From a virus, in the IMG/VR virus record IMGVR_UViG_3300025154_000033, positions 1-40,635 of that record: a stretch of 40,635 nt of DNA. The stretch is one strand, 5' to 3'. Both the position numbers and the translations under genes were made by a program. Below the pieces are notes generated by a model, which was not told the origin of the DNA, ran no database searches, and worked only from the letters and a program-made list of their open reading frames with translations. Positions 1,050 through 38,180 of this stretch are shown in pieces. Numbering within the stretch: position 1 is the stretch's first letter; every line of letters starts with the position of its first letter.

Positions 1050-1556
1050 ATGGCGCTTGTAATTGAGGATGGAACAATCGTTTCAGGGGCAAACAGTTAT
1101 GTCGCAACTATTGAGGCTCGCTCTTACGCAGCGTCTCGGTCGCTCTCTCTCCCGGCTGACGACGCGGCGCTTGAAGCTCTGCTTTTAAATGCGATTGACT
1201 ACCTCGAAAGCAAGCGCCAGCTTTACCAAGGCTCCAAAGTTTCGGAAACTCAGGCATTGCAATGGCCTCGGACCGATGTTTTTGTCGACGGCATTTACAT
1301 CGCTGCAACCGTCATTCCGGATTTGCTTAAATCGGCGCAAATCAGACTTGCAACAATTGCATATTCTGGTGTTGACCTCATGCCCACAAGAAGCGGGCCG
1401 ATTGTCAAAAAAGAAAAAGTCGGGCCAATTGAAACGGAATACTCTGAAACAGTTGGTACTACCATTGAGCCGTCAATGACTGTTATCGATTACCTTTTGG
1501 CACCGTTGCTTAAAAGCAAAATGAGCCAATTTTTTCTTAAAACGGTCCGGGTATGA
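1050..1556 (+). CDS. Head-tail adaptor (DnaT-like ssDNA-binding domain family)
   Basis: 168 residues. It resembles the phage connector family annotated as putative DnaT-like ssDNA-binding proteins: an N-terminal strand region (ALVIEDGTIVSGANSYV), then a helical part with ALEALLLNAIDYLES and QALQWPR, then a helix PDLLKSAQIRLA. These are the usual marks of the first head-completion protein that docks under the portal. The 3' end overlaps the next start by four bases (ATGA), as expected for translationally coupled connector genes. One TGTGGGCA-family 8-mer lies inside it at 1381. Confidence 0.8.
   Translation: MALVIEDGTIVSGANSYVATIEARSYAASRSLSLPADDAALEALLLNAIDYLESKRQLYQGSKVSETQALQWPRTDVFVDGIYIAATVIPDLLKSAQIRLATIAYSGVDLMPTRSGPIVKKEKVGPIETEYSETVGTTIEPSMTVIDYLLAPLLKSKMSQFFLKTVRV
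1381..1388 (-). repeat. Dispersed 8-mer TGTGGGCA, first of 21 copies
   Basis: Copies reading TGTGGGCA on the + strand start at 2477, 7877, 12574, 13967, 16068, 17801, 20910, 22340, 25637, 28704, 33091 and 36597. Copies on the - strand start at 1381, 3791, 7198, 11609, 13928, 17653, 22793, 33388 and 38158. Sixteen of 21 are preceded by T (TTGTGGGCA). About one copy is expected by chance at this base composition. Confidence 0.85.
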
Positions 1557-1900
1557 GCGAGCCGAGTCACGTCAGAGCGGCAGCAACAGCAAGCCGATTG
1601 ATAGCCAAGCATGGCCGATCAATGCAACTCAGAAGCATTGTTACAAGTGGCCCTGTTTACAATCCAACTGTAACAACGTCGGATAAAGCAATTGTCGGTT
1701 GCATGTTGCTTTACAGTGCAATTGAGCAAGCGAGCAGTTTAATTGCCGTTGGCGACAAAAAAGTATTGGTCGATTGTACCGAAGAAATTACAACGCAACA
1801 CAAATTGGTTGACGGGTCAATTGTTTACGAAATTAAAAACGTAAACGAAATTAAACCTGGTGACGTTTCGATCATGTACGAATTGCAGGTAAGCCGATGA
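1553..1900 (+). CDS. Head closure / connector protein
   Basis: 115 residues. Overlaps its neighbours at both ends by ATGA. The N-terminal RLIAKHGR and the C-terminal pattern of short beta strands ending KPGDVSIMYELQVSR match the small head-closure proteins (SPP1 gp16-like) that follow the DnaT-like adaptor in many siphoviruses. I assign it on that pattern and on gene order. No catalytic motif is present or expected. Confidence 0.65.
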   Translation: MSEPSHVRAAATASRLIAKHGRSMQLRSIVTSGPVYNPTVTTSDKAIVGCMLLYSAIEQASSLIAVGDKKVLVDCTEEITTQHKLVDGSIVYEIKNVNEIKPGDVSIMYELQVSR

Positions 1901-2334
1901 CTTTTGCACAGCAAATGGAAGCGTTTGCAAAAAAGACAAACAACAAAATTGAAGATGTTGTCGGGGCTGTTTGTTTTCAATTGTCTGAGTCAATTGTTTT
2001 GCGTACTCCGGTCGACACAGGTAGAGCGCGGGCCAATTGGATTCCAAGTTTAAATAATGTTTCACGTGAAACATCGGATGAAACCGACAAGACGGATGAC
2101 GCAAGCCCCACATTAAACAAAGTAAAACCGTTTGCCGAAAAATCAGCAGGTAAGATTTTTTATTTGATTAACAATTTGCCTTACATCAAAGTTCTTGAAT
2201 ATGGTAAATACGGAACAGGACCGGGGGCGACGATTAAAACAACCCGTGACGGTTACTCTATTCAAGCGCCGTATGGCATGGTTCGGATTTCGACAATAAG
2301 ATTTAGGCAAGCTCTCAAAAAGGCAATTAAATGA
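1897..2334 (+). CDS. Tail completion / neck protein (HK97 gp10-like)
   Basis: 145 residues. Shows the typical layout of HK97 gp10-like neck proteins: a helical N-terminus (TFAQQMEAFAKKTNNKIEDVV), then RTPVDTGRARANW, the family's best conserved stretch, then YIKVLEYG, and a C-terminal helix ending RQALKKAIK. It should sit at the head-tail interface. It overlaps the next gene by ATGA. Base use is AT-richer than the neighbouring tail tube gene. Confidence 0.82.
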   Translation: MTFAQQMEAFAKKTNNKIEDVVGAVCFQLSESIVLRTPVDTGRARANWIPSLNNVSRETSDETDKTDDASPTLNKVKPFAEKSAGKIFYLINNLPYIKVLEYGKYGTGPGATIKTTRDGYSIQAPYGMVRISTIRFRQALKKAIK

Positions 2335-2714
2335 GCTTTTCAAACATTTTAATCCAAGTTTTTGCTCGACTCGAAGCAGCAACAACTTTGCCGGATATTC
2401 TCTATCCCAACATCGAAGCACCGGAACAAACGGCAACCCATTTGCGGGTTGATATTCTTCCTGCGGGTGTTGATCCTGTGGGCATTTCCGAAGGCAATCA
2501 AGAATTGGGAACTATTCAAATTTCCGTATATTGTACACAAGGAACCGGGGCAATTGTTCCGGCATTGATTGCGGCAGCGGTGCTGGCGCTTTTTCCTCGA
2601 AACCTTGTTTTATCCGGTGTACGGATAGACAAGCCTGGAACTGTTAACCCTGGGTTTTTGGACGGCGCTTGGTATGTTTTACCGGTGTCCATCCCTTACC
2701 AATCTATTTCATAA
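2331..2714 (+). CDS. Tail terminator protein (DUF4128-like)
   Basis: 127 residues. The start, the central QTATHLRVDILPAG and QELGTIQISVYC, and the final YVLPVSIPYQS fit the small alpha/beta tail-terminator proteins (DUF4128 and lambda gpU-like) that cap the tail tube. Gene order, directly before the major tail protein, agrees. One TGTGGGCA site lies at 2477-2484. Confidence 0.75.
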   Translation: MSFSNILIQVFARLEAATTLPDILYPNIEAPEQTATHLRVDILPAGVDPVGISEGNQELGTIQISVYCTQGTGAIVPALIAAAVLALFPRNLVLSGVRIDKPGTVNPGFLDGAWYVLPVSIPYQSIS

Positions 2715-2727
2715 GGAGTATTAAAAA

Positions 2728-3186: not shown

Positions 3187-3206
3187 TCTTTTCCTCCATG
3201 CTATAA

Positions 3207-3244
3207 GCCGGGCCTTTGAATGGTCAAGGGTCCGGCAATTTTTG
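3207..3244 (+). terminator. Intrinsic terminator after the major tail protein gene
   Basis: A 13-bp stem pairs 3207-3219 with 3224-3236, with two G-U pairs and loop ATGG, followed by AATTTTTG. It probably lowers transcription of the downstream chaperone and tape measure genes relative to the tail tube. Confidence 0.8.
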
Positions 3245-3696: not shown

Positions 3697-4192
3697 ATGG
3701 TTGCACGCTGTTCCAAAGCAGGATGAAAAAAGTAAAATAAAGCTTCCGCAGAAAAGCAGAATGGAAACCCTCAAGGATCGAGCGCCAGATTGCCCACAAT
3801 TGGAACTGCCGGAGCTTGAGGGTTTTTCTTTTTTAATAGATTATTTGTTTGAAGTCGGGCCGGGCATAACAAATGGCATGGGCTATTGTGGGCTATCGTT
3901 TCAAGAGATTGAAAGCTGGCTACGAACAACAGCGTTGACTCTCACAGCCTGGGAAGTACTCGCATTGAAAAGGCTTTCATCGGCGTACGTTTCAGAGTAC
4001 AATCGGGCCGACGATCCGAAGCGAAGACCACCATATGTTCCCGAGGGAGCAACTGAGAAAAAGCCAGACAACAGTCAAGAAAGATTAGCATTTTACAAAT
4101 CGTTACAGGAAACAACAAAAAAGCGGGGTGGTGGTAATGGATCTGGCAATGTTGGGAATCGGAGTGGACAGCCGAAAAGTAAAATCGGCTGA
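3653..4192 (+). CDS. Tail assembly chaperone, frameshifted extension (T domain)
   Basis: The -1 frame extension of the gene at 3270, giving a GT-like fusion of about 307 residues. The junction reads AECLAELTIYVRHLAWLHAVP, which is typical of T-domain starts. No good independent start exists; the first candidate is TTG 3692 with no ribosome binding site. The segment ends in a Lys/Arg/Gly-rich tail. Its last 56 bases overlap the tape measure start, as usual. The T domain is thought to bind the tape measure. Confidence 0.8.
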   Translation, partial: AECLAELTIYVRHLAWLHAVPKQDEKSKIKLPQKSRMETLKDRAPDCPQLELPELEGFSFLIDYLFEVGPGITNGMGYCGLSFQEIESWLRTTALTLTAWEVLALKRLSSAYVSEYNRADDPKRRPPYVPEGATEKKPDNSQERLAFYKSLQETTKKRGGGNGSGNVGNRSGQPKSKIG

Positions 4193-7100: not shown

Positions 7101-8054
7101 TTTAATACGTATTACGATAAATTTTATACTGACGCTGAAAAACAAGCCAATTTGCAAAAATCGCTAACTACTATTTTTAAAGATATGAACATGATCCTGC
7201 CCACAACTAGGGAAGGATATCGCGCAATTATCGAATCTCTAAATCTCAATAATGAAGCCGACAGGGAACGGTATGTAAATCTGCTGAATTTGTCGGAAGC
7301 TGCTGACAGCTACTACAGCGCGATTGATGAAGGATTTGAAACGCTAGTTTCAAACATGAAAAGTTATGTCAGCGAATTAACAAATTTAAGCGGCTCCGTT
7401 AAAAGTGCACTCGCTACACTTTTCGGTACCAGTGCAACGACCAATACAAGAGGTTCAGCAAAAAATCTGATTTCTGACGCAATAACCACAATGCGGGGCG
7501 GCGGACAGATTAATAATGTTTCGGATTTGCAAAATGCATTAACTACTGTCGCCAATATTTCAAAAGGCGATTATGCTTCATTTACCGATTATCAGCGTGA
7601 GTTTTTTAAATCAGTAAATTTGATAACTTCTCTTGGAAAAGTGACCGACAATCAACTGAGCATTGAAGAACGGATGCTTGCCGCGATTGAAGACCAGACC
7701 GGGACCGAGGAAACACAACACACGGAGGCTATGGCCAGGCTTGACGCAATCCGGGCCGCTGTGCTGGGCGAGACTGCAACGGTTCCGGGATTTGCTTCGG
7801 GCGGTCGTCACGCGGGCGGGTGGCGAGTGGTCGGCGAGAACGGGCCGGAACTTGAGTATACCGGGCCAAGTCAAATTGTGGGCAACAGTGCAAGTGCATC
7901 TTTGCTGGACAATCGGGAGCTGGTCGAAGAGGTCCGCAAATTGCGCCAGGATCTTGCATCAAGTCAGTTTGCAATTGCTAAAAATGGCAAAGACGTGGTA
8001 AAAATAATCGACCGTTGGGACGTTAACGGATTGCCCGAAACCCGTGCTATATAA
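4137..8054 (+). CDS. Tape measure protein
   Basis: 1,305 residues from ATG 4137; in-frame GTGs at 4128 and 4131 belong to the G-rich ribosome binding stretch. It sets tail length and helps DNA entry. It is long and mostly helical, with charged coiled-coil stretches (KVKSAEKDLDNLARQAKK near the start and others at about 370-600). A Gly/Ser-rich linker (SLGGSSSSSGGASAA, about residue 640) follows a hydrophobic segment. Near the C-terminus is FASGGRHAGGWRVVGENGPE, a motif shared by many tape measures. At about 1.5 angstrom per helical residue the tail would be close to 195 nm, which implies a siphovirus (inference). Antisense open frames inside it are shadows. Confidence 0.93.
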   Translation: MDLAMLGIGVDSRKVKSAEKDLDNLARQAKKTEGSVDRLEKQSTSSTSKMAAGFSNAAKAVTLLGGVLAAAGLSTPFRRILENTIKQEKAVAQLNAALKSTEFAAGLTSKELQILAGDLQKVTTFGDEATIEMEALLLTFKNIKGDNFKRATTDILDMSVAMEQDLKSSAIMVGKALNDPIAGINALSRVGVTLNDSQKKLIKTLAETGRVAEAQGLILAELESEFGGSAKAARDTLGGALDGLSNAFNDLLEGRGNLTGTIAAFEKLTAILSDEKTVVAADKLMTSLLSGFGETANALVKILDVWEQLVASGWLGSMRSSGGALRIEDTPYANLLDMSGKKIKMPAGVQASANISRKDATTDRETLAATAIEINKIVEALKFENSQIGKNSVEQRINTELRAAGVSATSAEGQAIASLVTQIEAKSAAIKAAADEDTRIRKAASDAQQAFDKAAEDETTRRFNLYKDQLREKTDALAELNEMLSKTSIESTGATSFGDSLTDGISQTITAMNKLNSTYEKERELIEENAAIKASILEQTLAGSKEQEAMLSKLSKKENKENEILFKNQISGYREMFSTAKELYGEQSKERKKLHQIEQAFAAIEIALNLKKALSAAVTAIATQGSGDPYTAFARVAAMIGLMGSVLAMAGGSLGGSSSSSGGASAATAGTVLGDPSAQSESVSKGYELLKDIHAEEYTELRGIHNEMKDLNDNITGLVSNIVRNFGSFDESAMGVSTGSQTSKLADTLVESYAKSLTIYNTDFMKKIDPLTSFVNDLTTKALGWVANGIFGGSSKTTMASSGLSIGSANIGKILAGMDADIKAYAVLRTKIDGGWFKSDKTKYSTIYSKVDASITGLFTSLFENIGNSALEISKGLGVDFSKKIKAYTISIGDLYLTGKTGDEIAEIIGTKISEASDKMIEDIFGELVLQYQQINEGVFETAIRLIAEKAVIVDALDKSALKITGDIIAITQSISTLAGGIEEFQDIFNTYYDKFYTDAEKQANLQKSLTTIFKDMNMILPTTREGYRAIIESLNLNNEADRERYVNLLNLSEAADSYYSAIDEGFETLVSNMKSYVSELTNLSGSVKSALATLFGTSATTNTRGSAKNLISDAITTMRGGGQINNVSDLQNALTTVANISKGDYASFTDYQREFFKSVNLITSLGKVTDNQLSIEERMLAAIEDQTGTEETQHTEAMARLDAIRAAVLGETATVPGFASGGRHAGGWRVVGENGPELEYTGPSQIVGNSASASLLDNRELVEEVRKLRQDLASSQFAIAKNGKDVVKIIDRWDVNGLPETRAI

Positions 8055-11277: not shown

Positions 11278-13181
11278 AAGAAAGTGATTTGCTCAGGCTT
11301 TTTTGCGCGATGATAAAAATCTATATCATGTAACATTTCAATAGTTTCATTAATGTACCATTGATAATTAATATCATTTGGAAAAGCAAGGGGCAAATCC
11401 ATACAGGGTTTTGCCCCTTCACTTTTAGCAACTTTGTTTCCGCTGGCAATGTAATTAATCGTTTTGTTTTTTGTCTCGGTTGAATAGTACCAGCGCACAG
11501 CTTTGCCGAGATAAACGCCGTCTTGCTCACCCCCTCCTTTTACTGTTCGCACAGTCAAAAAGCGAGTCAAATCTTTGCAGTTTAAAATTGTTTCTTCAAT
11601 AGGGATGCTGCCCACAATAAGGGCTTCAATTGCATCGACACAGATTAATGAAGTTGGGTTTTTCTGCAATCCTGGTGCTGAATAAGCGCCCTTTGCTTTG
11701 CACTTGCCGTCTTCCTTGACAGCAATATAATTGTTTACGTCACGTGAGTAAACGGCTTTGTATCGGGTTTCTTCTGTTTCAAAGTCGGTCAATCGTTCCC
11801 AATGTTTTACAACATTATTCAAATCATTGTAACGATCAACCTGGCATTTAATAATAATTCCGTCGGTATTTCCAGACACAACGGGGATACCAATCAATTC
11901 GATCATTTCAATTAGCATTAAAAGTGAAAGCTGACCACTAATTGTAACTTGAATCATTAAATCGGGAGCGTACAAACTTGAGTATTTAGAGCCTAATTTG
12001 CCAAATGATCCATTAATTGTAATTTTAAGTGAATCAGCTACTACTTTGTTTTTTTCCTTTTTAGCTTTTAACCTTCGTTCAACGATTGAACGATAAACTT
12101 TTAAAAAGGCTTTCCCCATATGTGAAGGGTAAAGACCTTGATTCAGTATTATATTCGGGTAATAGCTCGCGACGTCCCTATCAATTAATAAAGTATTTTC
12201 GTCTGCAATATGATGCACGTTTTCTTCATTTGAATGCAGTCCGCCTATTCCCATGCGGTAATAAGTGCTGCTTATTTTAACTTTTTTTAGTTCTGTAAAC
12301 TCTTCGGGTTCTTCAATTGAGCCGTTTTCTTTTACCACAAAATCGGCATTCGCAACAATAGAAAGCATGTTGTTTAATTGTTCGGACTGATATTTAATAT
12401 ATTTAGGAACTTTGTATTTATAAATTGTTCCCGGCGCGATTCTTGGCCGCTTTGAATATCTGCCATTGACCTTGGCAACCTCTTCGCTTATAACGCATTC
12501 AGCAATTTGAGCGTCTGATTTCGAGCGCAAGTCTTGCCCATACTCCACCGACATTTGGGCACGAAGCTCCAATTGTGGGCAAAGCTCTTTGCAAAGCAGG
12601 GCGGTCAAGTCAAGGTCATTAAGGCAATAAAACCGTGTTTCGTTCATTTGGCTTGCCGTCAGGGCCGTGCTTGGATCATAAGGCAGGTCTTGCATGCGTT
12701 CGCAGTGCAAGCGACCCCCGTAGACCTTCAAGGAGGCTTTGAGCGGGGCAACTTCGATCAAGTCGATGTGGTTGAGCGGCAGAATTTTAAACTTATATTT
12801 TTCTTCAAGCTCCTGGCGACGAAGGTTATACAAAATCAAATCGTCGGTTGCATCTTTTAAAGTTCGGCAACTTGCGCCGGACAAAGCCAAAAAAATAACA
12901 GGAATGTCATAATTGATTGAATTAAATCCAACAAGGCAAAAGTTGAATAAGACAAACCAAAGTAATTCAAAATCTAAATCTTTGCTTTCCGTTCGCTCAA
13001 AATAAATAACTTTGTTAGTCTCAATACATTTAAACGCAATCAAAAAATAATTAGGAAAGCACTCAACGTCAAAAACTAAAACTTTGCCCTTGCTGGCTTG
13101 CAATTCTGCAACCGTAAAAAGAGCAAAGTCTTTTTTGACTCGCGGGGGTGTGGTAAGGGGTTTGTTTTTTGGTTTGAACAT
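11274..13181 (-). CDS. Family B DNA polymerase with 3'-5' exonuclease
   Basis: 635 residues. N-terminal DnaQ-like exonuclease: ExoI FDVE (D38, E40), ExoII GFNSINYD (N87-D92), ExoIII YCLNDLD (Y185-D189). Polymerase motifs: A, IDRDVASYYPN (D334, with S339 Y340); B, KITINGSFG (K386-G394); C, GNTDGI (N438 T439 D440). Motif C usually reads DTD; here the first Asp is Asn, but the Asp that binds metal in RB69-like enzymes (D623) is kept, so activity is expected. It is short for PolB and lacks a clear TPR2 insertion, so it probably uses RNA priming plus the clamp encoded just upstream. It is the last gene of the leftward replication block. Confidence 0.9.
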   Translation of the reverse strand: MFKPKNKPLTTPPRVKKDFALFTVAELQASKGKVLVFDVECFPNYFLIAFKCIETNKVIYFERTESKDLDFELLWFVLFNFCLVGFNSINYDIPVIFLALSGASCRTLKDATDDLILYNLRRQELEEKYKFKILPLNHIDLIEVAPLKASLKVYGGRLHCERMQDLPYDPSTALTASQMNETRFYCLNDLDLTALLCKELCPQLELRAQMSVEYGQDLRSKSDAQIAECVISEEVAKVNGRYSKRPRIAPGTIYKYKVPKYIKYQSEQLNNMLSIVANADFVVKENGSIEEPEEFTELKKVKISSTYYRMGIGGLHSNEENVHHIADENTLLIDRDVASYYPNIILNQGLYPSHMGKAFLKVYRSIVERRLKAKKEKNKVVADSLKITINGSFGKLGSKYSSLYAPDLMIQVTISGQLSLLMLIEMIELIGIPVVSGNTDGIIIKCQVDRYNDLNNVVKHWERLTDFETEETRYKAVYSRDVNNYIAVKEDGKCKAKGAYSAPGLQKNPTSLICVDAIEALIVGSIPIEETILNCKDLTRFLTVRTVKGGGEQDGVYLGKAVRWYYSTETKNKTINYIASGNKVAKSEGAKPCMDLPLAFPNDINYQWYINETIEMLHDIDFYHRAKKPEQITFF

Positions 13182-13182: not shown

Positions 13183-14151
13183 TCACCCCCTCACCTGCAT
13201 AATAGCACCCCTAGTTCGTTCACCGAAAAAAAACATCATATTCTTATGCGTTTTATAATCGGCAAACAAACAACAGTTTTCAATTAGTCTTAATTGTTTT
13301 ATAGCAAAAGCAGCGCCTAAAGTCAAGCCGGAAAGTTCAAAATTAGCGCCTTCATTTTCTTTTTTAGAAGTTCTGAGTTGATCTTGAAAAAAATAAACAT
13401 ATTCACCAAAATCTTTTAATGTGTCAACAGCTTTAAAAAAGTCTTTTGGTAATTCTTCGGCGTTTGTCTTTTGATTTAAAATGCGATTGCAGTCTGGAAA
13501 TTTTTCTTGATATAATTGAGTTTTAATCCAAGCTCCGTTTTCGAAATGAAAAGTGATTGAATTATCGGAAAAGCCTAATTGTTTTAGTTTTTGGCTGGAT
13601 TTTACAACGGCTTTGATTGCTGAAACAGGTATGACCAAATTTGGAGGCAAGTCGACCCCGTGCCAATACTCGATAACAACGGCACCGTTGGTCCCGGTGA
13701 CTGAGCCCGGGCCAAGCAGAATTGCAGAATTATGAACGAGAGATGAGTCTTCAGAAGGCAAATGAGCAATGAGGGCCAGCCCTTGTATCAGTTCGTCGGT
13801 GATCATCGCCTGTGGGGTGTCTGGCGAGGTTTCCGGCAGGTCTTCGGCGGTGCAGGGGATGACCACTTGCAGTTTTCCGGACTTAACGGCAAGGCGGTTG
13901 CCTTCGAGTTGCGTCATGCTGATATTTTGCCCACAATTGGCCAAGGCTTTTTGCAACGTGGCTGTGTGTGGGCAGCAACTCAGTTCTTCGGCGATTGGAT
14001 GACCGATAGTGGTTTGCCCATCTGTGGCCGTCAAAAAATTATCACCAAACCGACAATGAGTCTGAAAAACATTACCTTTATCCCTTTGCACTGGATAAAT
14101 AAATTTAATAGCGTCAAGCAAACCTTTTGATATTTTGGGTTGTTTGGCCAT
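13183..14151 (-). CDS. DNA polymerase sliding clamp (beta-like)
   Basis: 322 residues. Matches the layout of bacterial beta clamps: NFLTATDGQTTIGHPI in the first domain, GTNGAVVIEYWHG and LPPNLVIPVSAIKAV in the second, and FPDCNRIL, the equivalent of the common YPDYxxVI segment. It should encircle DNA and tether the phage PolB encoded one base downstream. The ATG shares one base with the stop of the preceding small gene (TAATG), implying coupled translation. A phage-encoded clamp next to PolB suggests replication is fairly independent of the host. Two TGTGGGCA sites lie only 39 bases apart inside it, in opposite orientation. Confidence 0.85.
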   Translation of the reverse strand: MAKQPKISKGLLDAIKFIYPVQRDKGNVFQTHCRFGDNFLTATDGQTTIGHPIAEELSCCPHTATLQKALANCGQNISMTQLEGNRLAVKSGKLQVVIPCTAEDLPETSPDTPQAMITDELIQGLALIAHLPSEDSSLVHNSAILLGPGSVTGTNGAVVIEYWHGVDLPPNLVIPVSAIKAVVKSSQKLKQLGFSDNSITFHFENGAWIKTQLYQEKFPDCNRILNQKTNAEELPKDFFKAVDTLKDFGEYVYFFQDQLRTSKKENEGANFELSGLTLGAAFAIKQLRLIENCCLFADYKTHKNMMFFFGERTRGAIMQVRG

Positions 14152-14591: not shown

Positions 14592-16163
14592 TCAAAATTC
14601 ACAACTTAAAATTTCAGGAAAACGACGATTAACCCATACTCGAATTCTTTTTGGTGGTGTTAGCTGCGAGACTTTCAGCAACGCTTCATCGGTAGTGGCT
14701 GGCGGTTCTTCATCATGGCGCTGCTTCCACCATTCTCTTGCGCGTTTGCCGGCAAAACCAGAGTGCTCCAAACACACCCATTCGTTAAACATTCGAAGAC
14801 CTGAATAATAGCAAACTTTGATCGACGGTGGGGATCCGATTTTATGATGCCGTTGATAGATAACTTTCTGAATGTCAAAATATTCAATAACCGGTGCGTC
14901 TGAACGTAAAATCTCATGTTCGCCTGCTGTCGGTTTAAGCTTGGTTTGGAAGGTAAATTCGTGACCGCAAGAACAGCAAAAACGGGCAGAAGCATGGTTG
15001 TAAACTCCACAATTTTCACAAATTCTTACCGGTGCTTCGCCTACTTTCTGGCCTTTTTTTCGAGGCAACACCGGGTCATTAATCGGGCCGAGTCTGGGAA
15101 CGTTCCCAGCGTAGTCTAAAACTAAGCAATTGGCTTTTTCTTCACAGGGTCGGGTTCCGCGCCCCAACATTTGGACATGCAATCCAGGTGAAACAGTTGG
15201 CCTAAATGATCCGATTAAATCAATCGGCGGATGATCGAAGCCGGTAGTTAAACAATTGTTATTTACAATACAGCGCAATTTTCCGCTTTTAAATGCCGCA
15301 ATCCTGGCGTCCCGTTCAGATCCGCTCATTTTGGAATGGACGGCAGCGGCGTCAATTCCCATGCTTGTTAAAATTTGGGCAGCATGTTCACTGCTTTTAA
15401 TACCGGATGCAAAAATTAACCAGCTTCGCCGGTCGTATCCGTATTGGACCAGTTCTTTTAATCCTTCAAACAAAACTTTATCAGTTTCATCGTCTAATTT
15501 TCCTTTGGCAAAATCACCGTTAACAATATTGATTTCCGAAGTGTCAATTTTGGTATTTGTTGGCCTTGGAATCAGCGGAGCAAGAAAACCGTCCGTAATG
15601 AGCCGATTAAACGCTTCAACACCTGTGAGGTCAAAACAAATGTCGGTAAAAAGCCCTTCGTCGGTGATTAAACCCTGACCAAGCCGGAACGGAGTTGCTG
15701 AAAGGCCGATGACTTTAATGTGGGGATTAATTATTTTAAATCTTGTAATAACGTTTTGATATGTCGTGTCATCTTTTGGGCTTACAAGGTGTGCTTCATC
15801 GATTATAATTAAATCACGGTGGCCGAACGCCTCAACGCAATTTTTAACCGATGCCATGCCACCAAAAATAATTGGCCGAATAATGTCTTTTTGATTTAAC
15901 CCCGCAGAATAAATTCCAGTAGGAGCAGTGGGCCAAATACTTTTTAATTTGTTGTGATTTTGTTCTATCAATTCTTTAACATGAGTCAAAACCATAAAAC
16001 GTTGTCGAGGCCACATATTCAAAACACGCTGAATAAATCCGGCAATAATAACTGATTTGCCCGTGCCTGTGGGCAAAGCCGTCACTGGATTGCCTTGGTT
16101 GCCTTCTTCAAAATAATCAAAAATGCTTTGAATGGCGTTTTCTTGGTAGGGTCTGAGAATCAT
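14592..16163 (-). CDS. SF2 DEAH-box DNA helicase with zinc ribbon
   Basis: 523 residues. Motif I PTGTGKS (31-37), motif II IDEAH (121-125), motif III SATP (155-158), motif VI QMLGRGTRP (331-339): all core SF2 helicase motifs are intact, of the type III restriction / SSL2-like group. A zinc ribbon follows at 382-399 (C382, C385, C396, C399). The C-terminus has VCLEHSGFAGKRAREWWKQR, a region common in phage copies of this helicase. It should unwind DNA during replication or recombination. Its start overlaps the radical SAM stop (ATGA), so the two are co-translated. Confidence 0.9.
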   Translation of the reverse strand: MILRPYQENAIQSIFDYFEEGNQGNPVTALPTGTGKSVIIAGFIQRVLNMWPRQRFMVLTHVKELIEQNHNKLKSIWPTAPTGIYSAGLNQKDIIRPIIFGGMASVKNCVEAFGHRDLIIIDEAHLVSPKDDTTYQNVITRFKIINPHIKVIGLSATPFRLGQGLITDEGLFTDICFDLTGVEAFNRLITDGFLAPLIPRPTNTKIDTSEINIVNGDFAKGKLDDETDKVLFEGLKELVQYGYDRRSWLIFASGIKSSEHAAQILTSMGIDAAAVHSKMSGSERDARIAAFKSGKLRCIVNNNCLTTGFDHPPIDLIGSFRPTVSPGLHVQMLGRGTRPCEEKANCLVLDYAGNVPRLGPINDPVLPRKKGQKVGEAPVRICENCGVYNHASARFCCSCGHEFTFQTKLKPTAGEHEILRSDAPVIEYFDIQKVIYQRHHKIGSPPSIKVCYYSGLRMFNEWVCLEHSGFAGKRAREWWKQRHDEEPPATTDEALLKVSQLTPPKRIRVWVNRRFPEILSCEF

Positions 16164-17131: not shown

Positions 17132-17132
17132 A

Positions 17133-18652: not shown

Positions 18653-18680
18653 TTTTATTTCTCCTTTTGTTGTTTGTTGT

Positions 18681-19321: not shown

Positions 19322-19352
19322 TTTTAATCTCCTTTTGTTGTTTGTTTGTTGT

Positions 19353-19652
<300 letters not shown>

Positions 19653-19700
19653 CGTAAAAACTCCTTTTGTTAGCCTTTCGGCTTTGGTTAAGTTAAATCA

Positions 19701-22328: not shown

Positions 22329-22362
22329 TGTATCCTCCCTGTGGGCAATTCGAATGTAAGCA

Positions 22363-22690: not shown

Positions 22691-24985
22691 ATGTCCTTTG
22701 AAAAAATACCGCTGGAAATGCGTCAATATCGGCAGTGGATTTGCTGGCGGCTTGAAGAAACAGACACAGGTAAACCGACTAAGCTCCCTTATTGCCCACA
22801 AACAGGTCAACTTGCATCCGTCTCAAATCCTCTAACGTGGGCCAGTTATGATGAGGCCGTTGCCGCTTCGGTTAATTATTCGGGCATTGGGTTTGTGCTG
22901 ACCGAAGAAGACCCTTACACTTTCATCGACCTGGATGAGCCCCATGATGTAGACGATGAAACCCGAACAACAATTTACGATAGACAATTAAAAGTTTTTA
23001 ATGAGTTTGACAGTTATGCCGAAACGTCACCTTCCGGAAAAGGATTGCACATTATTGTTAAAGGTTCGGTTCCGGCAGGTCGGAAACGTTCGGCTATTGA
23101 AATTTATTCAAGCGGTCGATACATGACCATGACCGGGCGGGTTTACCGCGAAAGTCCAATCAATAATTATAATGATTTGTTGCAACAATTATATAAGCAA
23201 ATGGGTGGGGGTGTTATTAATTATTGTGTAACAAATTGCGAACAAACGAAAGAAGATGACGAAGTAATACAAAAAGCTTTTAACGCAGCAAATGGCGAAA
23301 AATTTCACGATCTTTTAACCGGGAATTGGGCCGACCATTACCCGTCACAATCCGAAGCTGATTTTGCTTTGATAAATATCATTGCTTTTTACACACAAAA
23401 CACGCAACAAATCGCCCGAATATTTAGAAATTCAGGATTAGGAAAGCGAAAAAAGGCGCTCAGGGATGATTATCTAAATTATATGGTAAATCGGTCCTTT
23501 GACCGCATGTTGCCGCCAATTGACCTAGAAGGGCTAAAAAATCAGATGGAAGAGGCTCTTTGCTCAAAAAATAGGCTTTCAAATTTGCCCTGTGAGCCGT
23601 TAAAAGAACAAGCCCCCGCCCTTACCCTGCCTGAAACAAGCCCATATTCACTGCCCCCCGGCCTGGTGGGGGAAATTGCTCAATTTATTTATGAGGCATC
23701 CCCTCGGCCTGTGCTCGAAATAGCTTTGGCCGGCGCAATAGGTCTTATGGCGGGTGTTTGCGGGAGATCCTACAACATAAGCGGAACGGGGCTAAATCAA
23801 TATGTTTTACTTATTGGAGATACTGGCGTTGGAAAAGAGGCTTTATCTTTAGGTGCTGACAAATTAATAAAACCAATTTTGGCAACGGTTCCTTCCGCTG
23901 AAGAATTTATCGGCCCGGGAGAAATTGCAAGTCCACAAGCTTTGATTAAATATCTAGGATATGGTTCATCCTCTTTTGTCTCGCAAATTGATGAATTCGG
24001 AATGAAGCTACAAGAGATGACTTCCATAAATGCATCCCCTAATCAAGAAGGATTAAAAAGAGCTTTCCACTTTCTTTTTAGTAAATCGGGTGAGGGGCAG
24101 TCATTAAAAGGTTCAATTTACAGCGAGAAAGAAAAAAATACTAAACCTGTAATGGCTCCGGCCTTTTCAGTTTTGGGAGAATCAACGCCGGAAGAATTCT
24201 ATAAATGTTTAAACGAACGAATGATAACATCGGGTCTTTTACCTCGTTTTTTCATCATCGAATATAAAGGCAAGCGTGGCTATTTAAATAAGGGCCATGA
24301 AAAAATTAAACCAGATTTTCAATTGATCGAACGTTTTGGCGGATTGTGCGCACATTCATTAACTCTAAATAATTCGAACAAAGCCGTACATGTTGAAATG
24401 ACACCTGAGGCAACTTTTGAATTAAATAGATTTGACCAAGAAACAACGGATATCATAAATGAAAATAAACAAGATATTAGAAAAAGAATTTGGAATAGAG
24501 CACACATTAAAGTTTTAAAGTTGGCTGCGTTGGTTGCGGTGGGAATTAATCCGTTCAGCCCACAAGTGGACATGAATTGTGTTAATTGGGCCAAGCGTTT
24601 AATTATGGCCGATATTAAAAATCTTATTTCAAAATTTGAAAGCGGCGAAGTGGGCGATGACACGGAAGAAACAAAACAAATTGATGAAGTTAAACGAGTT
24701 ATTAAAGAATATATTAAAAAAGATTGGTCCGAAATTGAAAATTATAAAGCGTCTCAACCTAAATTACATCACGACAAAGTGATAACGTTGACATATATTC
24801 AACGTCGTTTAATGAGCACAGCTTGCTTTAGAAAAGATAAATTAGGTGCTACAAGAGCAATTCACAAAGTTGTCGAAACTCTTAAAGATCAAGGTATATT
24901 AATTGAAATTGGAAAAAGTCAAATTTTAAAAGAATACAACTTTAATGGAAAGTGTTTTAGTGCTTCTGTTTCAATGGTTTTATAG
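22691..24985 (+). CDS. Primase-polymerase / DUF3987 ATPase fusion
   Basis: 764 residues with ribosome binding site AAGGAAGG. N-terminal primase-polymerase: TFIDLDEP (D80, D82), SGKGLH (115-120) and IEIYSSGRYMTMTG (E137), the three AEP-type motifs seen in NrS-1-like phage enzymes. A DUF3987-type ATPase follows: Walker A LIGDTGVGKEA (374-384), then SSFVSQIDEFG as a likely Walker B. The C-terminal 120 residues are helical and AT-rich, perhaps a winged helix that binds DNA. The protein should make primers and unwind at the origin. The 364-base AT-rich gap right after it could be that origin. Two TGTGGGCA-type sites lie nearby (22340, 22793). Confidence 0.85.
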   Translation: MSFEKIPLEMRQYRQWICWRLEETDTGKPTKLPYCPQTGQLASVSNPLTWASYDEAVAASVNYSGIGFVLTEEDPYTFIDLDEPHDVDDETRTTIYDRQLKVFNEFDSYAETSPSGKGLHIIVKGSVPAGRKRSAIEIYSSGRYMTMTGRVYRESPINNYNDLLQQLYKQMGGGVINYCVTNCEQTKEDDEVIQKAFNAANGEKFHDLLTGNWADHYPSQSEADFALINIIAFYTQNTQQIARIFRNSGLGKRKKALRDDYLNYMVNRSFDRMLPPIDLEGLKNQMEEALCSKNRLSNLPCEPLKEQAPALTLPETSPYSLPPGLVGEIAQFIYEASPRPVLEIALAGAIGLMAGVCGRSYNISGTGLNQYVLLIGDTGVGKEALSLGADKLIKPILATVPSAEEFIGPGEIASPQALIKYLGYGSSSFVSQIDEFGMKLQEMTSINASPNQEGLKRAFHFLFSKSGEGQSLKGSIYSEKEKNTKPVMAPAFSVLGESTPEEFYKCLNERMITSGLLPRFFIIEYKGKRGYLNKGHEKIKPDFQLIERFGGLCAHSLTLNNSNKAVHVEMTPEATFELNRFDQETTDIINENKQDIRKRIWNRAHIKVLKLAALVAVGINPFSPQVDMNCVNWAKRLIMADIKNLISKFESGEVGDDTEETKQIDEVKRVIKEYIKKDWSEIENYKASQPKLHHDKVITLTYIQRRLMSTACFRKDKLGATRAIHKVVETLKDQGILIEIGKSQILKEYNFNGKCFSASVSMVL

Positions 24986-25349: not shown

Positions 25350-25718
25350 ATGATCGAGAAAATTAAAAAATTACGAGAGACTAGGGATGCTCTCCTAGCT
25401 ATTGTGGGTAACTGCCCCGAGGCCGACGCTTTGGGTGACAGGATCGACAGAATGACCGAAGCCATATCAACGCAAGGGTGTAACTCTCCTGTGGCTTATG
25501 ACGCCTCCCCAAAGGCATTGCACAAAGCCTATTTTAATTTAACTCAGGAAGTTTTTAAAAAACTGGAAATTGGAAAATGTTTTCTTTGGAAGTTTGAAGA
25601 TGTAAAAGAAACTTATTTGAGAAACAGGGCTTCTATTGTGGGCAAACAGATAGGCCGGAAGTTTCGAGTTATTAAACACAAAAATAACCAAATTTTTGAG
25701 ATTGCGAGAATAAAATGA
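25350..25718 (+). CDS. Hypothetical 122-residue protein
   Basis: I use ATG 25350 after AAGGGAA; a TTG at 25335 is in frame. The N-terminal half is helical and charged (IEKIKKLRETRDALLAIV, GDRIDRMTEAIS). The C-terminal half (KLEIGKCFLWKFEDVKETYL, then GRKFRVIKHKNNQIFEIARI) looks like a small strand-rich domain similar in feel to phage proteins that end in a beta hairpin. The GC content is higher at the start than at the end. It is followed by an ATGA overlap with the next gene. Function unknown; it is the first gene after the possible origin. Confidence 0.65.
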   Translation: MIEKIKKLRETRDALLAIVGNCPEADALGDRIDRMTEAISTQGCNSPVAYDASPKALHKAYFNLTQEVFKKLEIGKCFLWKFEDVKETYLRNRASIVGKQIGRKFRVIKHKNNQIFEIARIK

Positions 25719-28484: not shown

Positions 28485-28745
28485 ATGACCGATGATATTT
28501 TCAATTTTCTGCAAATGGGTTTGAAAGATTTTGACGCCGGGTTTAATATGATTCCGAGAAACGATGACGAAAGAGCAATTTATAACGTAATTCAATCTCT
28601 TTCAAAAATGAAAAACGTTTCCAGGCATACTGTTGGGAATTATGTTACCCTGCTTCGGGCCGAACGATGCTTAAGCGCGACCGACGGAAAGCCGGAAGAT
28701 CATTGTGGGCAACCTGGTTGTCCTTTTATGGAGGTTTTGTCATGA
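28485..28745 (+). CDS. Hypothetical 86-residue protein
   Basis: ATG 28485 follows AAAGGAG. Helical protein (DDIFNFLQMGLKDFDAGFNM, RAIYNVIQSLSKMKNVSRHT) with a C-terminal Cys/His cluster: C.. then DHCGQPGCPFMEV, which could hold a zinc ion. VSRHTVGNYVTLLRAE looks like a short DNA-binding helix pair, so a regulator is possible. It overlaps the next start by ATGA. One TGTGGGCA site lies at 28704-28711 within the Cys/His coding part. Confidence 0.6.
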   Translation: MTDDIFNFLQMGLKDFDAGFNMIPRNDDERAIYNVIQSLSKMKNVSRHTVGNYVTLLRAERCLSATDGKPEDHCGQPGCPFMEVLS

Positions 28746-33082: not shown

Positions 33083-33103
33083 AGTCAATCTGTGGGCATT
33101 GCA

Positions 33104-33568
33104 ATGAGCGAACTTGAGGAAAAGAAAAGACAATTTGCCGAAGCTTTGCGACTCGACATTTATGAGCCGATGAAAGCCGGTATGCTGTGCTTTCCTCTTG
33201 ATTTTCCGAAGGCGGCACAAGCAGCAAGCCAATGGCCGAATGATCCTTTTGTAAAAGCTGAATTAAAAAGACTAGATGAGGAAGCCGAAGAAGAAAAACT
33301 TTTGACTTTGCCTGATAAACTAAAACACGCTTTATCGGTTTGGGTTATGGCAAATGACGAAAAAATTGACCCGAAAGAACGACTGACTGCCCACAAATTA
33401 TATGCGGAAATGATGGAGCATATCCCCAAACCGCAGCCGGCGAATGTCAATGTCAACGTTGATAATCGGCGAGTGATGCTAATTAATGAAATGCCTTCGC
33501 TTGATGTTTGGGAACAAAAGGCAATCGAACAACAAGAAACTATAATTAATGCGTCAACGAGTCATTAA
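33104..33568 (+). CDS. terS: Terminase small subunit
   Basis: 154 residues from ATG 33104. It lies directly before and overlaps the large subunit by 20 bases, the usual arrangement. Central helices (DKLKHALSVWVMANDEKIDP, KERLTAHKLYAEMMEHI) and a final region (VNVDNRRVMLINEMPS) resemble small terminases of podo- and siphoviruses. It should bind the packaging start site on DNA. There is no clear N-terminal HTH, so identification rests on position and overall pattern. A TGTGGGCA site is six bases upstream of the ATG (33091-33098) and another lies inside (33388). Confidence 0.72.
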   Translation: MSELEEKKRQFAEALRLDIYEPMKAGMLCFPLDFPKAAQAASQWPNDPFVKAELKRLDEEAEEEKLLTLPDKLKHALSVWVMANDEKIDPKERLTAHKLYAEMMEHIPKPQPANVNVNVDNRRVMLINEMPSLDVWEQKAIEQQETIINASTSH

Positions 33569-35415: not shown

Positions 35416-36810
35416 ATGCCGAATGTAGCTTTTATCAGAAACGAGCTAAAAAACAAATTAGCCTCATATTATTTGATTCGTGATTGTATCGAGGGTGAGC
35501 AAAAAATAAAGGCCGGCAAAACTAAATATCTGCCAATGCCGAATGCCTCTGACACGTCGATTGAAAATCAAACCCGATACAAAGCCTATGTTGAAAGGGC
35601 TGTTTTTTACAACGTCACGCAACGGACGCTTGAAGGACTTGTCGGTCAAGTCTTCGCAAAACCTGCGGAAATTGAAATTTCCCCCATCCTTGATACGGTC
35701 AAAGATGACGCAAACGGATCTGGCATAAGTCTCGAACAGGTCGCAAAGCGGGCTTTATCGCTTAACGTGTCCTTTGGGCGTGCCGGTGTTCTGGTTGATT
35801 ATCCGGCGACCGACACGCCGGCTTCTCGTGCTGATATTATCAACGGCGACATTCGGCCAACAATCGAAACTTACAATCCTTGGGATATTATCAACTGGCG
35901 TACCATTGCCAGGGGAGCGAAAGAGATTCTTTCCCTTGTTGTTCTTCATGAGGATTTCGTTTACTCAGACGACGGCTTCGAAATGAAGACCGGTGAGCAA
36001 TGGCGGGTTTTGCGGCTCGAAAATGACTTGACTTATAAAGTTGAGGTATGGCGCAAGGGGGAAGCGGATTTTTCAATTGTTGAGCAATATTATCCGAAAG
36101 ATTCGACTGGAAATTATATTCGAGAAATTCCTTTTACGTTTATCGGATCAAAAAACAACGATTCTGAAATTGATGAAGCCCCGTTGTATTCGATAGCTTC
36201 ATTAAATATTGCTCATTACAGAAACTCGGCTGACTACGAAGAAAGTTGTTTCATGGTTGGCCAACCGACACCAATTTTCACCGGTTTAACCGAAGCCTGG
36301 GTCAAAAACGTGCTGGATGGTGTGATTGCCCTCGGCTCCCGTGGCTCAATCCCGTTACCTGTCGGAGCGTCTGCCTCACTGCTGCAAGCAGAGCCTAACA
36401 GCATGCCAATGGAAGCGATGACAGCCAAAGAGCGTCAAATGGTGGCGCTCGGTGCTAAGCTGGTTGAGCAAGCACAGGTTCAGCGAACGGCAACCGAAGC
36501 GGGGCTTGAAAACGCAAGCGAAAGCTCAATCCTGGCAAGCTGCACCAACAACGTTTCGGCAGCAATTAAATGGGCACTTGAATGGTGTGGTGTGTTTGTG
36601 GGCAACTTTGAGCCAGTGATTTTTAAACTTAATTCGGAATTTAATGTTAACGTTTACGACGCACAAATCGCCGTCGCCAAGCAGGGCGAAGTCAGTCTCG
36701 GGTTGACCGCCAAAGCCGATTATCGTTCATGGCTTCGCAAAGTTGGTCAACTCGACCCCGAGCGAACCGACGAAATGATCGATAGTGAAGCCGAAGTTGA
36801 GATTATTTAA
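35416..36810 (+). CDS. Portal protein (DUF4055 type)
   Basis: 464 residues. IRDCIEGEQKIKAGKTKYLPM near the start, YVERAVFYNVTQRTLEGLVGQVF, then YNPWDIINWRT and a long helical stem region are typical of DUF4055 portal proteins, with the C-terminal AKADYRSWLRKVGQLDPERT. It forms the ring through which DNA is packaged and to which connectors bind. One TGTGGGCA site is at 36597. It opens the head operon after the reversed gene. Confidence 0.9.
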   Translation: MPNVAFIRNELKNKLASYYLIRDCIEGEQKIKAGKTKYLPMPNASDTSIENQTRYKAYVERAVFYNVTQRTLEGLVGQVFAKPAEIEISPILDTVKDDANGSGISLEQVAKRALSLNVSFGRAGVLVDYPATDTPASRADIINGDIRPTIETYNPWDIINWRTIARGAKEILSLVVLHEDFVYSDDGFEMKTGEQWRVLRLENDLTYKVEVWRKGEADFSIVEQYYPKDSTGNYIREIPFTFIGSKNNDSEIDEAPLYSIASLNIAHYRNSADYEESCFMVGQPTPIFTGLTEAWVKNVLDGVIALGSRGSIPLPVGASASLLQAEPNSMPMEAMTAKERQMVALGAKLVEQAQVQRTATEAGLENASESSILASCTNNVSAAIKWALEWCGVFVGNFEPVIFKLNSEFNVNVYDAQIAVAKQGEVSLGLTAKADYRSWLRKVGQLDPERTDEMIDSEAEVEII

Positions 36811-36828
36811 ATTATTTTGTGAGGAAAA

Positions 36829-37149
36829 ATGAAAATTCCAAAGCGATTTAAACTAATGGGCGCATCAATCGAAGTTGTTGAAAACCCTCGCTTGATGCAA
36901 GACAGACATTGGGCGGGTTGCTGTGATTACGAAAATCACAAAATTGAAATCTTGCCTATAAGCGAAATTTATGCTGCTTCACAAACAAAATTAGAGCAAA
37001 CTTTTTGTCACGAACTTACCCATTTTTTGCTACATGCTTCGGGCGGCTGCGTGAACGCTGAGCTGAAAGATTACATTCATACGAATGAAGAATTTGTTGA
37101 GTTGCTTGGATGTTTGATCCATCAAGTTTTTGATACAATGGAATATTAA
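36829..37149 (+). CDS. HExxH metallopeptidase-like protein in the head operon
   Basis: 106 residues after GAGG. The first half is strand-like (KIPKRFKLMGASIEVVENP, YENHKIEILP) and leads to QTFCHELTHFLLHASG, a clear zincin HELTH (61-65). NEEFVELLGCLIHQ follows and could supply the third ligand (Glu or His). It resembles the small phage metallopeptidases of the ImmA/IrrE or SprT-like type. Its location between portal and Mu F-like head gene, with no serine-type prohead protease seen elsewhere, raises the possibility that it matures head proteins. That is inference. Confidence 0.75.
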   Translation: MKIPKRFKLMGASIEVVENPRLMQDRHWAGCCDYENHKIEILPISEIYAASQTKLEQTFCHELTHFLLHASGGCVNAELKDYIHTNEEFVELLGCLIHQVFDTMEY

Positions 37150-38157
37150 ATGCCTAATTCAATCTCACAAACATTAACCCGACACCAAATATTTATCCAG
37201 CGTTACGGCGGAAGTGAGTTTAAAAAACTCACTCCGGTTTTGCGCCAAATGTTAAAAGATATTAAAACAACGATGCAAAACGCACCCCCGAATCAAGTCA
37301 CACGATTGATGCAAATTGAAACGGAAATACGCTTAATTATTGGTAACGCTGCTGGTAAAATATCTCAGAAACTTTTACAATCCGCGAACGATTTAATTAA
37401 ATACGAATCGGGTTTTACAAATCGTTTTCTTGACGGTTTCATGACGGTTAAAAGTGCCGGCGTTGATTTGTATCAGCTTCAAGCGGTCGTTACAGCCGCA
37501 CCCATGAAACTTTTAAAAGGATCGAGTTTTAATAATCAAACCATTGAGCAAGCAATTAATCATTTTGCAGGTACGATTGAAAACGATATTTTGCAAAAAG
37601 TGCGAATGGGGATTGTTTCAGGGCAAACAACGCCGGAAATCACAAAGCAAATCGCAAGCCAAATCCAAACACGAACAGTTAAACAGGCCGAAGCACTGGC
37701 ACGAACAACGATTAATCACGTCGCAAGTGAAACACGAAATCAAGTTATAAAAGAAAATTCCAATTTGTTCGACGGTGAAAGATTTGTCGCGACGCTTGAC
37801 GGGCGAACGACGGTAACTTGTGCCGGCTTTGACGGCCAAAAATTTGATGTTGGCGAAGGTCCAATGCCGCCTTTGCATTGGAATTGCAGGTCGACCCGCA
37901 TTCCTCTGGTCAAAGAATCCCTTCGAATTCCAGGCTTTACTATGGAGCGGGCTTCGATGACCGGGCCGGTTGATGCCAAAGAGACTTATGGTGGATTTCT
38001 CAAACGGCAGTCGAAAGAATTTCAAAATGAAGTCCTCGGACCAAAACGAGCGGCGTTGTTTCGGTCGGGCAAAGTTTCGATTTCTAATTTTACGGATGAT
38101 AACGGAAGAGTCCTTACATTAAAACAGCTTGCGGAAAAAGAGAATTTAGTTTTATAA
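37150..38157 (+). CDS. Mu F-like minor head protein (SPP1 gp7 family)
   Basis: 335 residues; ATG directly follows the previous stop. Helical N-terminal half, then the family core: ALARTTINHVASETRNQVI, FVATLDGRTTVTCAGFDGQKF and PPLHWNCRSTRIPL, whose C and H residues are the conserved Mu F-like signature. Proteins of this family sit inside the head near the portal and help DNA exit. GC is lower in the first half. The gene ends three bases before a TGTGGGCA-type site (38158). Confidence 0.9.
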   Translation: MPNSISQTLTRHQIFIQRYGGSEFKKLTPVLRQMLKDIKTTMQNAPPNQVTRLMQIETEIRLIIGNAAGKISQKLLQSANDLIKYESGFTNRFLDGFMTVKSAGVDLYQLQAVVTAAPMKLLKGSSFNNQTIEQAINHFAGTIENDILQKVRMGIVSGQTTPEITKQIASQIQTRTVKQAEALARTTINHVASETRNQVIKENSNLFDGERFVATLDGRTTVTCAGFDGQKFDVGEGPMPPLHWNCRSTRIPLVKESLRIPGFTMERASMTGPVDAKETYGGFLKRQSKEFQNEVLGPKRAALFRSGKVSISNFTDDNGRVLTLKQLAEKENLVL

Positions 38158-38164
38158 TGCCCAC

Positions 38165-38180
38165 AAACTAACTATCAATT
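38165..38180 (+). repeat. 16-bp direct repeat flanking the DUF4406 gene, left copy
   Basis: AAACTAACTATCAATT occurs at 38165-38180 and again at 38495-38510, just outside both ends of the DUF4406 gene. The spacing (330 bases) is the gene plus its ribosome binding site. It may mark insertion or deletion of this gene by recombination. Confidence 0.9.

What the first reader, a model, noticed from the sequence alone, without database searches (positions are those of the whole stretch)
1381..38165. TGTGGGCA is about twenty-fold over-represented across the genome
Reading both strands I find 21 exact copies of TGTGGGCA (12 on +, 9 on -). From base composition about one is expected in 40.5 kb. Sixteen of 21 extend to TTGTGGGCA. 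Copies are spread over head, tail, replication and accessory genes, in both orientations relative to transcription and in different codon frames: it encodes (I/F)VG(K/N), CPQ or CGQ depending on frame. Protein coding and promoters therefore do not explain it. Candidates are a Chi-like recombination site, a primase or replication start word, a binding site for a host or phage DNA-organising protein, or an uptake or methylation word.
Basis: partly seen in the sequence, partly recalled or inferred. Interest (0 to 1): 0.78.

Follow-up and report, generated by a model that had tools for sequence, protein, structure and literature searches.

The report
Phage primase start sites across genome
An eight-letter DNA word repeated 21 times in this virus of bacteria is most likely the signal its own primase (the enzyme that starts DNA copying) recognises, and related viruses carry altered versions of the word that go with their own primases, so the enzyme's preferred start signal can be read straight from the genome.

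Summary
TGTGGGCA occurs 21 times (12+, 9-); an order-3 Markov model predicts 0.87, and it is the most over-represented 8-mer in the window. Synonymous-codon shuffling gives 2.2±1.4 where 19 lie in genes. One-mismatch variants sit at background.

The word is a property of the phage family, not of the host. Relatives with 39-56% GC from many hosts carry 12-24 copies; more distant ones carry TGTGGTCA, TGTGGTTA or TGTGGACA. Phages of the same host carry different words (Loki/HD01 on A. baumannii ATCC 17978; FtMidnight/Seurat on E. coli). Sites are kept in place: 12/12 between Loki and IME_AB3 against 15% of neighbouring 8-mers.

The word goes with one gene, an NrS-1-like PrimPol (22691-24985). NrS-1 PrimPol is published to recognise TTTGGTTA and GTGA/GTGG in template DNA. 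Phages that keep the Cas4/helicase/SSB/Sak4 cassette or PolB but carry another primase lack any such word; phages with another polymerase but this PrimPol keep it.

Best reading: TGTGGGCA is the template site at which the phage's PrimPol starts primers. Host Chi, uptake, methylation and promoter readings are disfavoured. No biochemistry was possible, and the sliding clamp is not excluded by co-occurrence alone.

The parts
1381..1388 (-). TGTGGGCA site
   Evidence: exact match
2477..2484 (+). TGTGGGCA site
   Evidence: exact match
3791..3798 (-). TGTGGGCA site
   Evidence: exact match
7198..7205 (-). TGTGGGCA site, in tape-measure gene, antisense
7877..7884 (+). TGTGGGCA site, in tape-measure gene, sense
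11609..11616 (-). TGTGGGCA site, in PolB gene, sense
12574..12581 (+). TGTGGGCA site, in PolB gene, antisense
13928..13935 (-). TGTGGGCA site, in sliding-clamp gene, sense
13967..13974 (+). TGTGGGCA site, in sliding-clamp gene, antisense
16068..16075 (+). TGTGGGCA site, in SF2 helicase gene, antisense
17653..17660 (-). TGTGGGCA site, in Cas4-type exonuclease gene, sense
17801..17808 (+). TGTGGGCA site, in Cas4-type exonuclease gene, antisense
20910..20917 (+). TGTGGGCA site, in DUF7173 gene, antisense
22340..22347 (+). TGTGGGCA site, in MazG gene, antisense
22793..22800 (-). TGTGGGCA site, inside the primase gene, antisense
25637..25644 (+). TGTGGGCA site
28704..28711 (+). TGTGGGCA site
33091..33098 (+). 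TGTGGGCA site at the start of the terminase small subunit ORF
33388..33395 (-). TGTGGGCA site, in terminase small subunit gene, antisense
36597..36604 (+). TGTGGGCA site, in portal gene, sense
38158..38165 (-). TGTGGGCA site, between genes
22691..24985 (+). Proposed reader: NrS-1-like AEP primase-polymerase with helix-bundle domain and C-terminal DUF3987 AAA+ domain (764 aa)
   Evidence: PHROG 3022 'DNA primase' E 4e-235; Pfam PF22763 NrS-1 HBD above curated cut-off and PF13148 DUF3987; family profile matches NrS-1 PrimPol structures E ~1e-42 and the 7ola primase E 6e-53; Foldseek of the AF2 model: the top six PDB hits are all NrS-1 PrimPol N300, E 3e-16
22922..23107 (+). AEP catalytic core motifs: D80xD82, S115-G118-H120, E137-Y139
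   Evidence: invariant or nearly invariant columns in alignments A1 and A4
23348..23491 (+). NrS-1-type helix-bundle domain (residues 220-267), the template-recognition module in NrS-1 and pRN1
   Evidence: PF22763 E 1.1e-9; the column most informative about word base 6 is residue 238 (23402-23404), in this domain

Best explanation
TGTGGGCA is the template recognition site of the phage's own primase, an NrS-1-like AEP PrimPol encoded at 22691-24985. The helix-bundle domain reads the GTGG core and the bases 3' of it in single-stranded template; the catalytic AEP domain then starts a primer opposite the T (and the preferred A/T bases) just 5' of the core, and PolB with its clamp extends it. About 20 fixed sites on both strands serve as repeated primer starts during replication of the roughly 40 kb genome. 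Shown here: excess and sharpness of the word, its conservation in place, independence from host, co-segregation with this PrimPol, and relation of that protein to NrS-1 PrimPol. Taken from the literature: NrS-1 PrimPol recognises TTTGGTTA and GTGA/GTGG and starts at the first base upstream; its HBD is needed. Inferred: that this phage's enzyme binds TGTGGGCA and primes there, and that the sites serve lagging-strand or restart priming.
For: (1) Word: 21 vs 0.87, sharp, not explained by coding. (2) Family-wide and host-independent: it or a one-base variant or shifted frame of it is the top 8-mer in the sampled Septimatrevirus/Lokivirus/Kilunavirus relatives; in an unbiased scan 105 of 164 non-redundant genomes or loci, nearly all primase carriers, have a GTGG-containing top 8-mer, while 3.9% of 8-mers contain GTGG. 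(3) Variants in the same register: TGTGGTCA 43 vs 2.7 (VspDsh_1) and 38 vs 1.9 (Ade_ART), TGTGGTTA 38 vs 2.0 (Seurat) and 25 vs 2.7 (HD01), TGTGGACA 17 vs 1.8 (M39). Phages of the same host differ: A. baumannii ATCC 17978, E. coli, P. aeruginosa. (4) Purifying selection: Loki to IME_AB3 12/12 sites kept vs 15% of local same-frame 8-mers; KL1 to phage 73 9/9 vs 18%; FtMidnight to 73 6/10 vs 3%. (5) Gene linkage: four phages with the Cas4+helicase+SSB+Sak4 cassette but another or no recognised primase have no over-represented word; RcIroh has the PolB with a PF09250/PriCT_2 primase and no such word, on the same host as RcSpartan, which has TGTGGGCA; VPv64 has a family A polymerase plus this PrimPol and keeps TGTGGTCA. 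H40/1 keeps the C-terminal DUF3987 domain but has another AEP domain without the NrS-1 HBD, and lacks the word. (6) Enzymology of the family: GTGG and TTTGGTTA sites, start at the first upstream base (PMC8718748); Seurat's TGTGGTTA differs from TTTGGTTA by one base. (7) Flank preference lies 5' of the core (A at -2, T/A at -1), where the primer would begin. (8) HBD residue 238 is R/K in most primases whose word has G at base 6 and N in nearly all with T/A/C.
Against: No biochemical test. The HBD alone is not sufficient: Lactobacillus CL2 has a strong PF22763 match and no word, 9NA only a modest CCCGTGG excess. NrS-1 itself has only two copies of its 8-nt site (PMC7102993). No strand switch along the genome is seen, as strict lagging-strand use from one origin might give. 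Label changes on gene trees favour the primase only weakly (11, against 11-14 for other cassette genes). The sliding clamp co-occurs with the PrimPol in every word-bearing isolate genome checked, so linkage alone does not exclude it. The residue 238 association is confounded by phylogeny; the window itself has T there.
Confidence: 0.82

Rival explanations
1. A Chi-like recombination signal: a host RecBCD/AddAB enzyme, or the phage's own Cas4-type exonuclease with helicase, changes behaviour at TGTGGGCA and so spares phage DNA or promotes recombination.
For: Short, sharp, dispersed, GT-rich word; the genomes encode a Cas4-type exonuclease, helicase, Sak4 annealase and SSB.
Against: Host version: the same host carries phages with different words, many hosts share one word, and E. 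coli Chi is not in comparable excess in FtMidnight (3 vs 1.2) or Seurat (1 vs 2.1). Phage version: four phages with the same Cas4+helicase+SSB+Sak4 cassette but no NrS-1-type PrimPol have no such word.
Confidence: 0.05
2. A binding site for another phage-encoded replication protein, most plausibly the beta-type sliding clamp complex, or a packaging, segregation or DNA-organising protein not recognised here.
For: The clamp co-occurs with the PrimPol in the word-bearing isolate genomes tested; dispersed double-strand sites would fit an organising protein.
Against: Sliding clamps are not known as sequence-specific DNA binders (general knowledge). HTH, MazG, DUF7173, PolB, terminase and portal are each undetected in some word-bearing genomes. 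The word family matches the published NrS-1 PrimPol motifs.
Confidence: 0.08
3. A transcription signal (promoter, operator or terminator element) repeated along the genome.
For: One site lies between genes and one at a gene start.
Against: Nineteen of 21 sites are inside listed genes, in both orientations and all codon phases.
Confidence: 0.02
4. Compositional by-product: trinucleotide avoidance in these phages makes a few permitted words look over-represented.
For: Several relatives strongly avoid GAG/CTC and also deplete GTG/CAC.
Against: The window does not avoid GAG (o/e 1.01) yet has 21 copies; the order-3 null includes these depletions; Seurat, Ade_ART and VspDsh_1 have 38-43 copies with near-normal GAG; site-by-site conservation is not compositional.
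Confidence: 0.02

Closest known systems
NrS-1 phage PrimPol and its 5'-TTTGGTTA-3' / 5'-GTGA(GTGG)-3' template sites (PMC8718748, PMC7102993)
   Same: Homologous AEP and HBD domains by sequence and fold; an 8-base word with a GTGG core; variant words one base from TTTGGTTA (TGTGGTTA in Seurat).
   Different: NrS-1 has only two 8-nt sites, and its PrimPol is described as a replicative polymerase; here there are about 20 conserved sites and a separate PolB with clamp.
pRN1 ORF904 primase, 5'-GTG-3' template motif
   Same: AEP primase whose helix-bundle domain recognises GTG in template and starts primers outside the motif (PMC8718748); a pRN1 primase entry (9aam) is among the fold matches.
   Different: Archaeal plasmid enzyme; three-base motif; a different helicase domain.
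Primase of PDB 7ola/7om0, which I recall as the SaPI5 primase (source not checked)
   Same: AEP and HBD region matches the family profile at E 6e-53.
   Different: The match covers only the N-terminal region; no genome-wide site set was examined here.
T7 gp4 primase sites
   Same: Repeated short template sites used by a phage primase.
   Different: T7 primase recognises the pentanucleotide 5'-(G/T)2GTC-3' (PMC12839067 abstract) and belongs to the TOPRIM class (general knowledge); here an AEP fold and an 8-base word in strong excess.
E. coli Chi, GCTGGTGG
   Same: Sharp 8-mer over-represented in a genome.
   Different: Chi belongs to the host; this word belongs to the phage and changes with its PrimPol.

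Membership tests
NrS-1-like AEP PrimPol | AEP catalytic motifs (DxD, SxGxxH, E of motif III) | tested here: met
   D80, D82, G118, H120, E137, Y139 invariant and S115 at least nearly invariant in A1 and A4
NrS-1-like AEP PrimPol | NrS-1-type helix-bundle domain after the AEP core | tested here: met
   PF22763 38.4 bits vs cut-off 27.9 in the window; matched at E<=0.01 by 17 of 18 family members
NrS-1-like AEP PrimPol | Fold of the N-terminal region like NrS-1 N300 | tested here: met
   Foldseek top six hits all NrS-1, E 2.7e-16 to 2.5e-15, prob 1.00
NrS-1-like AEP PrimPol | C-terminal AAA+ helicase-like domain forming a hexameric ring | tested here: inconclusive
   DUF3987 and MCM-like fold hits for the C-terminal part; oligomeric state not modelled
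NrS-1-like AEP PrimPol | Sequence-specific de novo primer synthesis on template | not testable with these tools
   needs enzymology; genome words match the published motif core
Host Chi site | Word set by the host recombination enzyme, shared by phages of one host | tested here: not met
   A. baumannii ATCC 17978, E. coli and P. aeruginosa each carry phages with different words
Host Chi site | Strand polarity relative to replication | tested here: not met
   no strand switch along 12 aligned genomes, permutation p 0.46; mild overall excess on one strand
Phage Chi-like site read by the Cas4/helicase cassette | Word present wherever the cassette is | tested here: not met
   four cassette carriers without NrS-1-type PrimPol have no word
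TOPRIM (DnaG/T7-type) primase site | TOPRIM primase present | tested here: inconclusive
   the only primase recognised among the proteins scanned is AEP-type; not every ORF was scanned for TOPRIM

The most novel reading that the evidence does not exclude
The phage clade replicates by distributed de novo priming: about 20-40 fixed PrimPol sites on both strands, held in place by selection, act as primer start points, and the helix-bundle domain has been re-specified repeatedly (TGTGGGCA, TGTGGTCA, TGTGGTTA, TGTGGACA, TGTGGGG) with the whole site set rewritten each time, a genome-wide co-evolving primase code.
Probability: 0.35. Interest if true: 0.85.

Novelty: new variant of a known kind. Interest (0 to 1): 0.7.

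Why it matters
If right, the template specificity of a widespread phage primase family can be read from genome sequence alone, giving many natural enzyme-site pairs for working out how the helix-bundle domain reads DNA (an open point stated in PMC7102993). It predicts where primers start in P. aeruginosa, A. baumannii, E. coli, Xanthomonas and Queuovirinae phages, and shows that a replication enzyme can impose a genome-wide word that stays under selection inside genes. It also cautions against reading over-represented phage words as host Chi, methylation or uptake signals.

Tried and rejected
Host Chi, methylation and uptake readings: different words in phages of the same host. DnaA box: TTATCCACA 0-1 copies. 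Fixed longer repeat or mobile element: flanks are unrelated and single mismatches are at background. Protein coding. Strand polarity around an origin: none found. Residue-word association: suggestive only, phylogeny-confounded. Scanning viral contigs with the window primase alone found no relative; alignments were needed. Literature: no paper found that names these words as a phage motif; the Loki genome paper was searched for repeats, motifs and origin and does not mention them. The original NrS-1 paper (PMC5373334) is not held.
Full report
Observation. TGTGGGCA occurs 21 times in the window, 12 on + and 9 on -. A third-order Markov model predicts 0.87; no other 8-mer has so large an excess, and the remaining high scorers come from one low-complexity region near 18.6-19.7 kb. 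Words one base away are at background. Shuffling synonymous codons leaves 2.2 (sd 1.4, max 7) where 19 are seen. Nineteen of 21 copies lie in listed genes, sense and antisense, in all three phases. The window has a 127-base terminal direct repeat, so it looks like a complete circularly assembled phage genome.

What phage. Portal, terminase, PolB, clamp, SF2 helicase, Cas4-type exonuclease, SSB, Sak4-like protein, MazG and primase place it with Septimatrevirus, Lokivirus and Kilunavirus, at about 45-64% protein identity for the best conserved proteins.

The word belongs to the phage family. TGTGGGCA is strongly over-represented in phage 73, KL1, IME_AB3, Loki, AH03, Langgrundblatt1, FtMidnight, Kmi2C, BREN6, VCLv11, RcSpartan and Lucius (12-24 copies, expected about 1 or less); in Loki, Kmi2C and RcSpartan a shifted or one-base variant (AATGTGGG, TGTGGGCT, TTGTGGGC) scores slightly higher. 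These have 39-56% GC and very different hosts. More distant relatives carry variants in the same register: TGTGGTCA (Ade_ART 38 vs 1.9; VspDsh_1 43 vs 2.7; weaker and more degenerate in VPv64 and PSASB_03), TGTGGTTA (Seurat 38 vs 2.0; HD01 25 vs 2.7), TGTGGACA (M39 17 vs 1.8), and CTGTGG-cored words in RHEph04. Phages of one host differ: Loki and HD01 on A. baumannii ATCC 17978, FtMidnight and Seurat on E. coli, 73 and PSASB_03 on P. aeruginosa. Three viral-contig scans with primase alignments gave, with the isolates, 164 non-redundant sequences of 9 kb or more; in 105 the top 8-mer of an unbiased scan contains GTGG, against 3.9% of all 8-mers. Further variants include TGTGGGTA and TGTGGGG.

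Selection on sites. Loki and IME_AB3 are 74.6% identical where aligned, yet all 12 comparable Loki sites are kept in place, against 15% of 8-mers in the same frame nearby. KL1 to 73: 9/9 against 18%. FtMidnight to 73: 6/10 against 3%. KL1 to VCLv11 (96% identity): 15/16 against 81%.

Which gene reads it. The primase at 22691-24985 has an AEP core with invariant catalytic motifs, a Pfam NrS-1 helix-bundle domain and a DUF3987 domain. Its family profile matches solved NrS-1 PrimPol at E about 1e-42, and Foldseek of an AlphaFold2 model (pLDDT 86) puts six NrS-1 entries first. NrS-1 PrimPol recognises TTTGGTTA and GTGA/GTGG in template, through the HBD, and starts at the first base upstream (PMC8718748). 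Seurat's TGTGGTTA is one base from TTTGGTTA, and every variant found keeps GTGG. The preferred flank in GGCA phages (A at -2, T/A at -1, then T) lies 5' of GTGG, where the primer would begin.

Natural gene swaps. Phages H40/1, 1N2-2, Mcat26 and CGphi29 keep the Cas4, helicase, SSB and Sak4 homologues but have a TOPRIM primase, a PF09250/PriCT_2 primase, or no recognised one, and no over-represented word. H40/1 even keeps the DUF3987 domain, so the word goes with the AEP-HBD part. RcIroh has the PolB, another primase, and no such word, on the same host as RcSpartan. VPv64 has a family A polymerase with this PrimPol and keeps TGTGGTCA. A Jerseyvirus with the portal homologue alone has no word. 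HTH, MazG, DUF7173, PolB, terminase and portal are each undetected in at least one word-bearing genome. Only the clamp co-occurs throughout.

Limits. An NrS-1-type HBD is not enough: CL2 (D5-type helicase domain) has no word, and 9NA has only CCCGTGG 25 vs 5.8. NrS-1 itself has two sites. A possible reason, inferred, is that over-representation needs a PrimPol used for repeated priming beside a separate replicative polymerase. No strand switch was found, so use on both strands, for example in recombination-dependent or restart priming, is as likely as strict Okazaki priming. Gene-tree counts favour the primase only slightly. HBD residue 238 is the column most informative about word base 6 (mostly R/K with G; N with T/A/C), but the split follows phylogeny and the window has T.

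Verdict. The word is best read as the template recognition site of the phage's NrS-1-like PrimPol. The enzyme family and its GTGG core are known; the conserved genome-wide site set and its re-specification across a large phage clade appear undescribed in the literature I could search.

Noticed in passing
L012 (RcSpartan), L003 (phage 73), L005 (KL1), L011, L013, L007, L008: Near-total avoidance of the trinucleotide GAG/CTC: RcSpartan 5 copies against 854 expected, phage 73 28 vs 826, KL1 29 vs 809, Lucius 27 vs 902; GTG, GATC and GTAC are also low in several. The window does not show it (o/e 1.01). A Vsr-like nuclease is shared by these phages but also by the window, so the cause is open.
   Followed up: partly
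L024 (Enterococcus phage Paulomi): A different dispersed word, ACTGGTTT, 25 copies vs 3.5 expected; this phage has its own primase/helicase gene, so it may be another primase site.
   Followed up: no
L019 (Salmonella phage 9NA): AATAATTC/AAGAATTA words are over-represented and CCCGTGG is its top 7-mer (25 vs 5.8); the primase has an NrS-1-type HBD with a D5 helicase domain.
   Followed up: partly
window 18640-19655: Long low-complexity GC-rich repeats with 12- and 18-base periods, before and beside the SSB gene, read as Ala/Thr/Pro-rich in one frame; they explain the other over-represented words.
   Followed up: partly
window 30986-31495: Five tandem copies with a 78-base period inside the 470-aa ORF at 30281-31693, which has no PHROG match and only a sub-threshold Pfam hit.
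   Followed up: no
window 16160-17146: A radical-SAM gene (PHROG 9298) inserted between helicase and Cas4 genes, not detected in the close relatives examined; function unknown.
   Followed up: no
window 1-127 and 40509-40635: Identical 127-base terminal direct repeats, most likely from circular assembly of a complete genome.
   Followed up: no
L134, L203: Primases nearest to the TGTGGTCA group but genomes enriched in TGTGGGCA, suggesting independent re-specification.
   Followed up: partly
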